A stretch of 64,000 nucleotides of DNA from Melampsora larici-populina 98AG31 (lineage: Eukaryota > Basidiomycota > Pucciniomycetes > Pucciniales > Melampsoraceae). The notes below the pieces were generated by a model. It saw only the letters and a list, made by a program, of their open reading frames with translations. It did not search any database and was not told where the DNA came from. Below are positions 7,143 through 42,658 of the stretch, one piece after another. The first letter of the stretch is position 1, and each line of letters starts with the position of its first letter. Where the stretch lies: NCBI RefSeq assembly GCF_000204055.1, contig NW_006768767.1, positions 1,594,498 to 1,658,497 of the forward strand. Direction: 5' to 3'. The position numbers and the translations under genes are program-made.

Positions 7143-7449
7143 AATCCCTGACGTCACCACAGTGCACCGCACTTTTGCGCATTACTGTGATGCGCTGACA
7201 CTACAAAAACTATCTGATTTTCCGCGGGGATTTTTGATTTCCCATAAGCGGAAAATCACGTGACATATGTACACCGTGTACAGAGGTTACGCGGTTTGAT
7301 GTACTGTACACCGCTGTACACACATCCACCCATACATCGCCACTCTGACGATGCGCGACTGCAGCGTCTGTACACCGACCAAAAACGGACGACGCCGTCG
7401 TCAAACGTTCCCAATCAAGTCAAAACGATCTCTTCGTCTGAAACCACCA

Positions 7450-7590
7450 CGAACCTTGGTCTCTTCGCCGGCAACCATCACGAACGTGGTCTCTTTGCCG
7501 GCAACCATCACGAACGTGGTCTCTTTGCCGGCAACCATCACGAACGTGGTCTCTTTGCCGGCAACCATCACGAACGCTGCCTCTGCATCG
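7450..7590 (+). repeat. 30-bp minisatellite, about 4.7 units
   Basis: A 30-bp unit recurs with GCAACCATCA starting at 7471, 7501, 7531 and 7561. In one plus frame each unit encodes the decapeptide LFAGNHHERG; the other strand also stays open. There are no spacers, so it is not a CRISPR array. It lies near the left end of CACTA-1. Confidence 0.9.
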
Positions 7591-7764
7591 GCAATCGTAC
7601 GAACACGATCCCTTCACCTGAAACAATTGCCAACCACTGTTTCTATCACCCCCCTCGACGGTGTCGTACGGTGTACCTCTCTCAAGCAGCCTTCCAGCAC
7701 TCACCGCCTGTGCACAAACACAGCACCCGCAGCTCTCTTTTACACAAAATATGTGAATAATATC

Positions 7765-8060
7765 TAATAAGGCAGGCGCAATTTGCTTGGCAGATGTTGG
7801 AGCGGATTGGTTTGGAATCACAGCATTCGAGGTCTTGGATGCACTGGAATTGAGAGAATTATTAGAACAGGTATGAAAACAATCTGTGAAGGGAAAACAA
7901 TGCCTTACCAGCTCTTTCCAGTTTCACCTTCAGCAATTTTCCTATCAGAGAGTTTTTAATAGCTTGTGCAACTTTTGAGACCGCGTGTCCGTCGACTGAG
8001 ATGTGTGAAGTGCTGTAACACCGACCCAAAACGGACTGATTCGCCTTCGACGTTTCCACA
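7765..8060. other. Coding-like fragments inside CACTA-1
   Basis: The plus strand reads GAICLADVGADWFGITAF and onward to a GTATGA donor-like site. The minus strand reads VAQAIKNSLIGKLLKVKLER followed by GTAAGG and, 65 bases on, a TTCCAG acceptor with a CTAAT branch-like site. Both look more gene-like than the rest of the element, but I cannot decide the strand or name the gene. A captured host gene fragment is plausible. Confidence 0.3.
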
Positions 8061-9540
8061 ACTCAAAATGGACGGCTGAAACCATCAAAAACGGCCGAAT
8101 GGATTGGGTCCCCGTTGTCCTCACACTTCTCTCAATCTGTCGTCAGCCCAAGCTGGTCCATCTCGTTCTCTTGGTAAACTGTGGCAAGGTCAGTCAGCCT
8201 TTGACCTCAAGTATGCATCACGAGTTACCTGCTGACTATATAAATATGTACATTGATCAGCACATTACAATTGTCGATCCGCATCTCGAACATCCTCCAA
8301 ATTAGTATATCTACAGGGAAGCTGTTGAGCACGCTACATTCTTGTGAAGCTGCCAGATGATTAGATCACAAAGGATGGTGTTGGACCGGATTGTCAAGTT
8401 GGACTGACTACTTCAAGCCCAAGACATGCAAGTGTTCAAATTCAATAAGTACACTAAGATGAAGTTGGTTGGTGCATGAGAAAGAAAAACATGTGCAAGC
8501 TGCAGGAAATACTCAGCCTCAGGTGCTGGTTTTGATTGCTGACAGGTGTGGTTTAAGCTATGTATCTAGAAGCATATGGCTATCCACACACGGAAGCGTC
8601 AAGGAAATTAGCAAACAAATATTCAGTCAGTCATCATAGTAGACACTCAAGATGGTCAAAAGAAGCTGTTCTTAACTTCTAGCTTGACTTACTTGATTGT
8701 GGGTTGAATGCCTTGTATTTTCATGGCATTGTAGTGTTGTAAACATTGTTGGGCAAGTATCATGTATCACTGTTCGATTCTTAACATTTGACAAGGGACA
8801 GTTTGTATTCAATGATCGCTTTTGAAAACTGGTGGCTTGCATCAGACAAACCATAAGAAATAAGAGTAATAAGGAAAAGGTTGCAAAGTAAGGCAAGAGA
8901 GGATGAGATTAAACTTGAAGTACAAAATAAGATCACTCCAAACGTTCATCAAGTAAACTAAGATTGAAATGACCAGTCTCAGTAGAACGTGAACAGTCAC
9001 TGAAACATTGGCATCAACGGGGATGTTGTGTTTGCCAACAAGTACAGTTGCTCGGCATTGTCAATATCTAGAACCATGTTGGTGATCATGCCAGCCGTCT
9101 CTGGTTGCTTTTTGGCGATCTGTGGGTAAGGGGCCCCACCAAGCATTTCTGTGGATTGTGAACACAAGAAAGTTATACTTGTGCATTTCCAACGTGAACG
9201 CAAGGGTTTGATGCAGACGTTCGTGATGTTGGATCAGAGAGGGAGGAGGATCACGATAGACTTGACGGAAACGGCCGTTTGCAATGGTTTCAGCCAAGAA
9301 TGCTGTTTTGAGTCGTCGAAATTACTGTTGGCTCCGTCCGTTTTTGGTCGGTGTACAGACGCCACCGTTGTGAGTCGTCAGGGGTTGTCTTGCGGAAGAT
9401 TTACAGCTGGTTGCGTGTACAGAGGTGTACCGTACATCATGAGCTACCCGACCCATGAACACGCTGTACGCCAGTCACGTGATTTTCCGCTGTTTCAGAA
9501 TCGAAATTCCCTGGGGAAAATCAGTTTTTGTTTGTAGTGT

Positions 9541-39030: not shown

Positions 39031-39384
39031 TTGTTTAGAATGAGTATTAAAAGGAAAAGATCCAATACGGAAGAGACTTTCAAAGTTTTTGAAGAGGGAA
39101 GTGACATAACTTGGCCAACAATCGTCAAGTGTGAGATGAATGCCTTAGAGTGGGAAAGACAATTGAAAATATTTGGTTTAATTGACAAATATCAATACCT
39201 TTTAGATGGGTTTTTAGAGGGTTTTCATCAAGGTGTCCCAAAGCACGGATTGAAAGGAGCAAAGTGGTTTTGCCCGCCAAATCACTCATCAGCAGAAAAC
39301 ACAAAAGGGAAAAATTGAAGAAAACATAAAGAAAGAAGTAAAGCTCGGTAGAATGTACGGTCCTTATTCCAAAGAAGATGTTTA
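39031..39384 (+). pseudogene. Reverse transcriptase, 5' piece before CACTA-2
   Basis: From ATG at 39040 the frame reads through EWERQLKIFGLIDKYQYLLDG and WFCPPNHSSAENTK to a TGA at 39316-39318. A shifted frame continues as KKEVKLGRMYGPYSKEDVY up to the CACTA-2 insertion. The pattern is the N-terminal extension and first fingers of a retroelement RT. The change of frame near 39300 looks like a small indel. Confidence 0.6.
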
Positions 39385-40586
39385 CACTACAAAAATAAAC
39401 TGATTTCCCCCGGGGAATTTTGATTTTGAAACAGGGGAAAATCACATGACTCCTGTACAGGAAGTACACAACCCCTCCTTCGAACCCTCCATGACGGCAG
39501 CATCTGTACACCGACCACAGACGGAGTCTGTACATCAACCGTCGTTCGACCAACAACCCCAGTGAGCCTCAGTGTCTGTGTGTACATAGGCCGTCCAAAA
39601 ACGGCAAGGGCATCGCTGGGCATTCCGTCGATTCGAAACGGCAACTGCTGAAACGTCTAGCCATCCCTCATCGTTTTACTCCTTGCTCGATTTGTTGACA
39701 AACTTTTCACTTCCACAGGACTCTTACTTCCAGGCTAGACACAGCCGTATGATATTGCCAGGTTTGGATTACAAGCATCCAACGTTTTGGTATTTCTTTG
39801 AATCAAACCCGCAAAACCGTCATATCGCACAGCATCCCACGAGTCCTCCACCATTCAACCCAACGATTCCAAGTCAACTACAGCTTTGAGGAACACTGTT
39901 ATCTTTGTCATCTTTGTGCCTCACAAAAATGAGCAAAGTAATCTATACATTAAATTGGACAGGCCGTTTGGAAGATCAATTAAAGCAGATTAAAGCAGTA
40001 TAGTAAGTTTTTGCACATCATCATTTAGCTTGCAAACCCCGTTATTAACTAGTATTTCCCTTCCAGTGATCTTGTGAAATGCTTCACCGCTCCGACACGG
40101 TCCATCCTCCGTTCAACAAACCATGGAATGCATCATCTGTACACCATCCAAAAACAAGGCCGGTGTTGCTGAACATTTGATCGACTCAACAATTCCCAAT
40201 CTGCAACAGCTGATGCTCATGCTGAAATTATCAATTGATTGAGAGAGGAATGTGTTGTTGAATATACTTCCAAGATGAGTCAAACATTTTCATGTATGCA
40301 ATTCTTGCTATTCTCATCTATTGTCAACACAGAATGTGGGTTTTTACTTATTTGCCTTCATTGTGTACAGAGATGTCATCATGCAAAGATTTGAACAATC
40401 AGTACGAGGAAGATGACACAGACGCATGATGTAAATGATCTATCACGCGAGTCGCCAAGCCAATGCCAAATTACAATAGAAAAGCTTTCTATTCAAAATA
40501 CACCACTCATTTTTGTCTGTCTATGTCATATTTATCATTATATATATATATATATCCTTTTTTAGAAAATCACTGCATCACTTGGC

Positions 40587-41204
40587 ATGGCTTCAAAGGC
40601 ATTAGAATATTTATCACCTCCTTCACCTTCAGCTAAACTTGAAGATTCCGAATCGATCCAAGAATACTTTACCACACTCAATGTAAGTCAAGTCAACCTA
40701 TCATCTTTTTCAAACTTTTTCCGAATCACTCCAAGAATACTTTACCACACTGAATGTAGATTGAGTCAACCAATCATCTTTTTCAAACTTTTTCCGGATC
40801 GATCCAAGAATACTTCACCACACTCAACGTAAGTCGAGTCAACGGATCATCTTTTTGAAATTACCGATCATTACTCATTCTCCGATTTTGTTCAAACTGC
40901 AGAAATAATAACCATATGAAGCTTTTGAATCATACAGAACATCCAACTAGGTCTACATACTTCGATCTCTCATTTACAAGGAGCTTGTATCTCTGCCCGA
41001 CTTCTCTATGAACCACCACACAGTAATGTTCCAGGAAGTTCAGTAGGTCTTGGAAAGTTGAATGCAATAAGTTATCTTGCAGATTATCATGAAGCTAAGT
41101 CTGATGATGGATCTTCAATTGCTGAAAGAGATGGATGGAAAGATTTCCTAGAAGCTTTAAGAGCCTTGAGTAAACAGAAAGATCGGAAAGGAAAGGAACC
41201 ATGA
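40587..41204 (+). CDS. Two-exon gene inside CACTA-2, 120-residue protein, unknown function
   Basis: Exon 1 (40587-40682, 32 codons) starts MASKALEYLSPPSPSAKLED and ends at GTAAGT. Exon 2 (40938-41204) starts NIQLGLHTSISHLQGACI after CATACAG and ends in a Lys-rich tail (SKQKDRKGKEP) at TGA 41202-41204. Splicing is in phase 0 and both exons are free of stops. The protein is helical and polar, with no signal peptide, membrane segment or catalytic motif. It does not resemble a transposase. The likeliest reading is a host gene, or part of one, captured by the transposon and kept intact, implying recent capture or selection. The intron contains a 73-bp triplication. I could not name the parent gene. 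Confidence 0.6.
40650..40868 (+). repeat. 73-bp tandem triplication across a splice donor
   Basis: CCAAGAATAC recurs at 40658, 40731 and 40804, a period of 73. Each unit covers the 3' end of exon 1 and its donor: GTAAGT in copies 1 and 3, GTAGAT in copy 2. The extra copies sit within the predicted intron. Confidence 0.9.
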
Positions 41205-42480
41205 ATGTTTACGTTTTTCAATGGAAGCTCTTTAACGTGTCATGTATATGCATATCCTTCATGTATGTGTCATGAACCAACGTAAGCGCTGCTTGAGGTT
41301 TTGGTTCATAGTCATACCTCTCTTTTGTATAATCTGTAACTCTGAGATTGTGTTACCAAAAAATCTGGATTTGATTCATTGAAATTGTTCTTAATACTAT
41401 TGCTTTCATCCTCACTATTTTCAAACAAATTTCGAGCAAAGAGGTACAAAATATTGGTTCACAAAGATGTGACAAGTGGTCAACATAAGTCAAGATCCAT
41501 TGATCACTCATGGAAGCTTCAGTCTTTCGCAGTACATAAAATGGATGTTTCTTCTCGGAATGAGTTATGTGTGGCGTGGCTCAATGGTCCCGAGCTTTTG
41601 TCGGCGTCCAAGCTCATGATCCCCCTAGTTCGGCTCCTCTGCTTGATTCACTCGACGCGCACCAACAAGACAATAGCTTACGTCCAAATACCGGCCTCTA
41701 GATTATAGCTTTGTTTCAACTTCAAGAAAGATGGTATGAGTAAAACTTTAACGAAAAAGTGCGACTTGAGTTAAACAAAGACAAAAGGGATGATTGGCAA
41801 GTCAATTATCAATCAGTTTTTCCATCCTTCAGTTCATACTTTTCCAAGACTTGAACAGCCTCATCTGACGTGTTCTTCAACAAGCAAATTAGCTGATGGT
41901 TGCGGGTGTGTTCAGCCTGGAAGTAAGAGGACCGCAGAAGCGAGAAGTTCGTCAGCAAATCGAAAAAGCTGTAAGACAATGAGGGTGGCCCTGCGTTTCA
42001 GCAGTCGCCGTTCTGAATCGATGAAATGCCCGGCGATGGCATCGCCGTTTTTGGACGGTGTACAGACGCTGAAGTGGTTCGTCGAACGAGGGGCGATGTA
42101 CATAGGACTCCGTCGTGTAGGGATGCTGCCGTTGCTTGCCGTCACCAGTGCTGGCAAAAGGGTGACACACAAATTGCGATCGACAGATGATTGAGAGAGA
42201 GAAGATGACGCAATTGATGAAAGCGGCCGTTGGCGATGGTTTCAGCCAAAAATCTTGCTTCGAGTTGTCGGAAATGTTTAATGGCTCAGCAGGCTCAGCC
42301 TGTTTTGGTCGGTGTACAGACTCTGCTGCCGTGGTCCGGCTGACCGAAAGCGTACAGGATCCGGTGTTCAGTACAAGGACCACCTGACGCAATCAATGTA
42401 CACGCTGTACGCAGGTCACGTGATTTTCCCCTCATTTGAAATCAAAAATCCCCGGGGAAAATCAATTTTTTTCTGTAGTG

Positions 42481-42658
42481 TTATGCTAGATTAGGATTTT
42501 TTAGGACCAGCCCCTTAGGTGCAGTAGAAAACGGTGATGGCACGTTCAGACCAATAAATGATATGTCCTATCCAAAATTTGATTCTGAAATCCCTTCCGT
42601 AAATTCCTCTGTTGACAAGCAAGACTATGAAACCACTTGGGACGTGTTCTTTTATTAA
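42481..42658 (+). pseudogene. Reverse transcriptase, piece after CACTA-2
   Basis: Resumes after the TTA duplication: LGFFRTSPLGAV, GDGTFRPINDMSYP and PSVNSSVDKQDYETTWD, then a stop at about 42656. Removing CACTA-2 and one TTA restores GPYSKEDVYARLGFFRTS in a single frame. The catalytic motifs (palm domain) that should follow are missing, so the element is truncated here. Confidence 0.65.

What the first reader, a model, noticed from the sequence alone, without database searches (positions are those of the whole stretch)
39385..42480. CACTA-2 transports an intact spliced gene and no transposase
Ends, 3-bp TSD and subterminal motifs define the element. The 120-residue gene at 40587-41204 has a clean intron and no stop, amid otherwise decayed elements, which suggests recent capture of a host gene or a function selected within the element.
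Basis: partly seen in the sequence, partly recalled or inferred. Interest (0 to 1): 0.75.

Follow-up and report, generated by a model that had tools for sequence, protein, structure and literature searches.

The report
Fungal transposon carrying four gene pieces
A 3.1-kb jumping-gene relic in a fungal genome has picked up pieces of four unrelated housekeeping genes, and the seemingly intact gene inside it is a copy of a transcription-machinery gene (MED11) without its first exon; such patchwork elements are well known in plants but little known in fungi.

Summary
The element at 39385-42480 is real: CACTAC...GTAGTG ends, about 85-bp inverted repeats (80%), TTA target duplications, TGTACA-rich subterminal ends, no transposase. 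About 62% of it is DNA copied from four loci elsewhere in the same genome: RPN5, a CUL1-like cullin, MED11 and PAB1. Introns are kept, so capture was at DNA level. The 120-residue "gene" is MED11 exons 2-3. Capture starts 15 nt inside MED11 intron 1, so exon 1 and the start codon are missing and the ATG at 40587 is an internal Met codon. The full three-exon parent (198 aa) lies on another contig, outside such ends. Noncoding divergence of about 15% speaks against recent capture. Selection on the open frame is undecided: pairwise dN/dS is 0.30, which a neutrally drifting element does not clearly exclude, and conserved residues are lost. Five of seven examined elements with the same ends carry host-gene pieces, among them the window's other one (7199-9539: GH31 and another part of PAB1). 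This fits a Pack-CACTA family like soybean Tgm-Express. Eight library searches showed me no fungal example. Transcription could not be tested.

The parts
39382..39384 (.). left target-site duplication TTA
39385..39468 (+). left terminal inverted repeat (CACTAC...)
   Evidence: inverted pair with 42397-42480, 80%; same ends in sister elements
39473..39836 (.). left subterminal region with TGTACA motifs, inverted copies on the right side
39837..40093 (+). captured piece of RPN5 (exon-intron-exon), frame shifted by a 4-nt insertion
   Evidence: 77% to C9:606671-606924; donor has PSMD12-CSN4_N, PCI, RPN5_C domains and matches PSMD12/RPN5 structures
40192..40494 (+). captured piece of a CUL1-like cullin (exon-intron-exon), with a stop and a frameshift
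   Evidence: 72% to C49:213278-213605; donor Cullin and Cullin_Nedd8 domains, best structure match cullin-1
40493..41635 (+). captured piece of MED11: most of intron 1, exons 2-3 and 3' flank
   Evidence: 74-75% with gaps to C5:969984-971036
40587..40682 (+). first part of the 120-codon frame (MED11 exon 2 from an internal Met codon)
40646..40864 (+). 73-bp unit, three tandem copies over the exon 2/intron border
40938..41204 (+). second part of the frame (MED11 exon 3)
41640..41862 (-). captured 3' end of PAB1 (last codons and 3' region), reverse orientation
   Evidence: 77% to C49:609870-610105; donor has RRM and MLLE domains
41888..42396 (.). right subterminal region
42397..42480 (-). right terminal inverted repeat (...GTAGTG)
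42481..42483 (.). right target-site duplication TTA
7199..9539 (.). sister element with TGA duplications, carrying a GH31 piece (8177-8453), a PAB1 piece (8987-9173) and a piece of an unidentified repeated family (7724-7978)

Best explanation
39385-42480 is a non-autonomous CACTA/EnSpm element that works as a carrier of host-gene pieces (a Pack-CACTA). Shown: its ends enclose copies of four host segments from four separate loci, introns included, while the larger donor genes remain in place. Inferred: a TNP2-like transposase made elsewhere moves it in trans; host DNA entered by copying another locus during repair or replication of the element, or by neighbouring copies being moved as one. The 120-residue frame is MED11 exons 2-3 without exon 1: most likely an ageing passenger that still happens to be open and would at most give a truncated or chimeric transcript.
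For: Ends, duplications, motifs. Four donors, each a larger gene. Introns kept in three pieces. Equal-length neighbouring stretch has no such piece (one control). Sister elements with other host pieces: five of seven. At least 150 Transposase_21 matches in the genome.
Against: No transposase gene was tied to these ends. Two of seven sister spans gave no host gene. The MED11 frame is open and both coding deletions are in frame, which a pure passenger need not show; post hoc combination p 0.03-0.07.
Confidence: 0.86

Rival explanations
1. The captured MED11 frame is used: it makes an N-terminally truncated Med11, perhaps a competitor of the cellular subunit, and selection keeps it open.
For: 120 codons without stop, two of two coding deletions in frame, pairwise dN/dS 0.30 (0.15-0.60); with calibration on dS a neutral element gives so low a dN in 0-2% of 600 runs per setting. 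RPN5, cullin and PAB1 pieces in the same element are broken or cut short.
Against: With calibration on noncoding divergence the same dN arises in 17-28% of runs, and the pairwise ratio in 7-12% in all settings. Eight changes at sites conserved in both outgroups lie on the element, two on the parent. Exon 1 and a conserved stretch near the end are missing. No transcript evidence available.
Confidence: 0.1
2. The direction is reversed: the C5, C9 and C49 sequences came from the element.
For: Similarity alone has no direction.
Against: The donors extend beyond the shared pieces as larger genes with further exons and domains, and the C5 exon 1 is shared with rust Med11 proteins.
Confidence: 0.01
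3. The mosaic is an assembly artefact or chance similarity.
For: Only one assembly was seen and reads are not available here.
Against: The pieces differ from their donors by 14-22% of aligned bases, so they are not misjoined donor DNA; E-values 1e-37 or lower; matching 3-bp duplications; the same pattern in sister elements.
Confidence: 0.02

Closest known systems
Tgm-Express1, soybean CACTA element (PMC1947982, abstract seen)
   Same: CACTA ends around several unrelated host-gene pieces with introns kept (five there, four here)
   Different: Plant host; sits in a gene and its pieces are shown to be spliced into transcripts; transcription here is untested
Pack-CACTA / Pack-TYPE elements of plants (PMC8903248, abstract start and passages seen)
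   Same: CACTA-type ends, short duplications, no transposase, coding DNA from several loci
   Different: Described there as found in plants; 'fung' does not occur in its held text
Pack-TIRs of animals (PMC8277862, passages seen)
   Same: host DNA between DNA-transposon ends
   Different: Other hosts; mechanisms proposed there (gap filling, template switching) are not tested here
Histone H3 transduplication by hAT elements in ascomycetes (PMC3538342, PMC6710886, passages seen)
   Same: a DNA transposon carrying a housekeeping gene in a fungus
   Different: hAT, one gene, many copies; in PMC6710886 an intronless transcript copy; here CACTA, four pieces, introns kept, one copy
EnSpm families of Pucciniales (PMC12730594, passages seen)
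   Same: CAC..GTG termini and 3-bp duplications in rust fungi
   Different: Families named by their transposases, some with a TET/JBP gene; this element has only host-gene pieces

Membership tests
CACTA/EnSpm element | CAC...GTG terminal inverted repeats | tested here: met
CACTA/EnSpm element | 3-bp target-site duplication | tested here: met
   TTA here; 3-bp duplications also read at the six sister spans
CACTA/EnSpm element | repeated subterminal motifs | tested here: met
   TGTACA, 8 against 0.2 expected
CACTA/EnSpm element | moved by a TNP2-like transposase | tested here: inconclusive
   150 Transposase_21 matches listed in the genome, none within the spans examined
Pack-CACTA | no transposase inside | tested here: met
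Pack-CACTA | coding host DNA inside, parent copy elsewhere | tested here: met
   four donors
Pack-CACTA | mobilised, with further copies of the same element | tested here: not met
   one copy of this mosaic in the own genome; sister elements share ends, not contents
Med11 (PF10280) | score over the curated cut-off | tested here: not met
   element frame 22 bits against 26.9; the C5 parent 53.5 bits
hAT-type transduplication of a transcript copy | captured sequence without introns | tested here: not met
   introns kept in RPN5, cullin and MED11 pieces

The most novel reading that the evidence does not exclude
A fungal Pack-CACTA expresses a selected, N-terminally truncated Med11 that competes with the cellular Mediator subunit, so that a transposon tunes its host's transcription machinery.
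Probability: 0.06. Interest if true: 0.85.

Novelty: new member of a known kind. Interest (0 to 1): 0.52.

Why it matters
Patchwork gene capture by CACTA elements is a recognised source of new exon combinations in plants. If rust-type fungi have it too, with housekeeping genes cut and joined several at a time, exon shuffling by DNA transposons becomes testable in large repeat-rich fungal genomes, and gene annotation there needs a filter for such copies. Two sister elements 30 kb apart that carry neighbouring parts of one PAB1 gene are a natural test of how capture happens.

Tried and rejected
Intact gene: rejected, exon 1 missing. Recent capture: rejected, about 15% noncoding divergence. A MED11 family spread by this element: rejected, one copy of the mosaic; protein search finds only C3 and C5. 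Family PF10280 in the own genome gave nothing, but its 14 control genomes gave nothing either, so that search says nothing. First protein-database search with the element frame: none of 14 candidates passed. Autonomous partner: Plavaka and Transposase_21 profiles and two long spans gave no link. C119 (L027) holds a copia gag copy; C18 (L025) a 98% segment of C14 with no Pfam hit in the one ORF scanned.

Left out of the 5-of-7 count: spans on C30 and C140 were looked at for long ORFs only (C30: MULE transposase domain; C140: no Pfam run), and the further places with one end were not followed.

Full report
What was checked. The stretch 39385-42480 begins CACTAC and ends GTAGTG, with inverted arms of about 85 bp at 80% and further inverted subterminal blocks. 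It is flanked by TTA on both sides. TGTACA occurs 8 times in the 1,045 bp of the two ends and twice in the 2,026 bp from 39837 to 41862; in 2,000 first-order Markov sequences the mean was 0.2 and the maximum 3. The frame 40587-40682 + 40938-41204 encodes 120 residues without a stop around a GT...AG intron. No start-to-stop ORF inside exceeds 146 aa, and none of the 150 listed Transposase_21 matches lies in it (150 of 195 candidates were scored).

What the gene is. Pfam gives Med11, a Mediator subunit, at 22 bits against a cut-off of 26.9. In this genome (98.3 Mb, 243 contigs) the protein search finds two places, the element and contig C5. The corresponding 142-residue part of C5 scores 33.6 bits. 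Upstream at C5 an exon ends ...QRIRELGLVDE, followed by a 74-nt intron. Joined, the three exons (C5:969823-969969, 970044-970181, 970259-970570) give 198 residues scoring 53.5 bits from profile position 1. The protein matches P0001 at 47% (residues 1-191) and the Austropuccinia psidii Med11 P0002 at 43% (residues 20-194), exon 1 included. The start codon of C5 is inferred from P0001; a longer N-terminus is also open. The similarity of the element to C5 starts at nucleotide 15 of intron 1 and ends 466 nt after the stop codon. The element therefore lacks exon 1, and its ATG at 40587 is an internal Met codon. In the 9.9 kb held around the C5 gene, blastn found no element sequence beyond the MED11 piece, and four CACTAC-like words there are not followed by the family's terminal sequence as judged by eye.

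Four genes, not one. One search also matched 39837-40093 to C9, 40192-40494 to C49 and 41640-41862 to a second place on C49, 397 kb away. Each was the only match outside the element for that part among the 32 candidates scored. The donors are RPN5 (PSMD12-CSN4_N, PCI and RPN5_C domains; best structure match PSMD12), a CUL1-like cullin (three Cullin stretches and the neddylation domain) and PAB1 (three RRM stretches and the MLLE domain). Introns are kept in the RPN5, cullin and MED11 pieces, so DNA was copied, not mRNA. The PAB1 piece is in reverse orientation and holds its last codons and 3' region. The cullin and MED11 alignments overlap by two bases at 40493-40494, and four bases separate MED11 from PAB1. 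Together the pieces cover 1,924 of 3,096 bases (62%). A stretch of the same length just to the right gave one dispersed repeat of about 150 bp and no gene piece (a single control, not a survey).

Age and selection. Of aligned bases the MED11 3' flank differs from C5 in 66 of 426, intron 2 in 11 of 77, and the 5' piece (intron 1 with the start of exon 2) in 14 of 81. RPN5 differs in 55 of 253, cullin in 59 of 301 and PAB1 in 37 of 222, coding parts included. This is not recent. Pairwise dN/dS for MED11 is 0.30 (bootstrap 0.15-0.60; dS 0.25, dN 0.08). Of 19 residue differences, 9 point to the element, 4 to the parent and 6 are unresolved; where both outgroups agree it is 8 against 2 (one-sided p 0.055). 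If the element were neutral and the parent constrained, a pairwise dN/dS of 0.30 or less arises in 7-12% of 600 runs per setting and no stop in 11-22%. A simpler simulation gave no stop in 26% at 8% divergence and 8% at 16%. For dN alone the answer depends on the clock: 17-28% with noncoding divergence, 0-2% with dS. Both coding deletions (21 and 45 nt) are in frame, a one-in-nine chance. Combined after the fact these give p 0.03-0.07. The frame may be decaying more slowly than chance; this is not established. The RPN5 piece has a 4-nt insertion in its coding part, the cullin piece a stop and a frameshift, and the PAB1 piece ends one codon early (read from the alignments).

The family. Six further spans with the same ends were read, with these duplications: window 7199-9539 TGA, C16 TTA, C18 TGA, C119 ATT, C43 TGT, C4 TAT. 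Window 7199-9539 carries a GH31 piece, a piece of an unidentified repeated family and a PAB1 piece that adjoins the other element's PAB1 piece, overlapping by 14 bp in the donor. C43 carries PAM17 and C4 a glycerol-3-phosphate dehydrogenase piece; C4 also has two short unidentified matches elsewhere. C16 carries a CSN2-like piece, named by PCI and PDB matches; its donor was not seen because an 817-bp dispersed repeat filled the search, 40 of 774 candidates being scored. C18 and C119 gave no host gene. With the element studied here that is five of seven. Transposase_21 genes are plentiful (150 listed) and could act in trans, but none lies in the spans examined.

How it most likely works. Shown: the ends, the host segments, their donors and the kept introns. 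Inferred: trans movement, and capture by repair copying or by joint movement of neighbouring copies. The latter is proposed for Pack-TYPE elements in plants (PMC8903248, passages); template switching with short shared sequence is proposed for animal Pack-TIRs (PMC8277862, passages). Two sister elements 29.8 kb apart with neighbouring parts of one PAB1 gene fit either.

What is known. Soybean Tgm-Express1 is the nearest likeness: a CACTA element with five host-gene pieces whose exons are spliced into many transcripts (PMC1947982, abstract). In ascomycetes, hAT and Tc1/mariner elements carry captured genes (PMC3538342, PMC6710886, passages), and Helitrons capture genes in Pleurotus (PMC4289320, search listing with start of abstract). 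EnSpm families are described from rusts (PMC12730594, passages), and CACTA is named among rust superfamilies in a passage that does not speak of gene pieces (PMC12210899, two passages). I saw no fungal Pack-CACTA in eight searches. The library holds open-licence papers only, so this does not show absence from print.

Limits. One unnamed assembly, no reads, no transcripts, no relatives in the genome tool. The genome searches score best candidates only, so 'single copy' is a lower bound on copies. Only one control stretch was searched.

Noticed in passing
L020:4528-4677 and the matching places of L021-L024: A different repeat family (ends CACAAG...CTTGTG, five copies 98-99.8% alike, CAT on both sides in L020) carries a 157-bp piece of MED11 exon 3 at 79%: a second, separately amplified capture of the same gene.
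   Followed up: partly
L019:4540-5002 (C5:2060539-2061001): A third partial MED11 copy, with upstream sequence, exon 1 remains and the start of exon 2, broken by stops.
   Followed up: partly
window 8987-9173 and 41640-41862: Two sister elements in this window carry neighbouring pieces of the same PAB1 gene, in the same reverse orientation, overlapping by 14 bp in the donor.
   Followed up: partly
L026:5302-6111: The long span between family ends on C30 contains a MULE transposase domain and a weak OTU match.
   Followed up: partly
window 42488-42650: A dispersed repeat of about 150 bp, 68-80% identical to 23 other listed places, lies just right of the element.
   Followed up: no
L025:5170-6334: A 1.15-kb segment of the C18 element is 98% identical to C14:295481-296630; what it is remains unknown.
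   Followed up: partly
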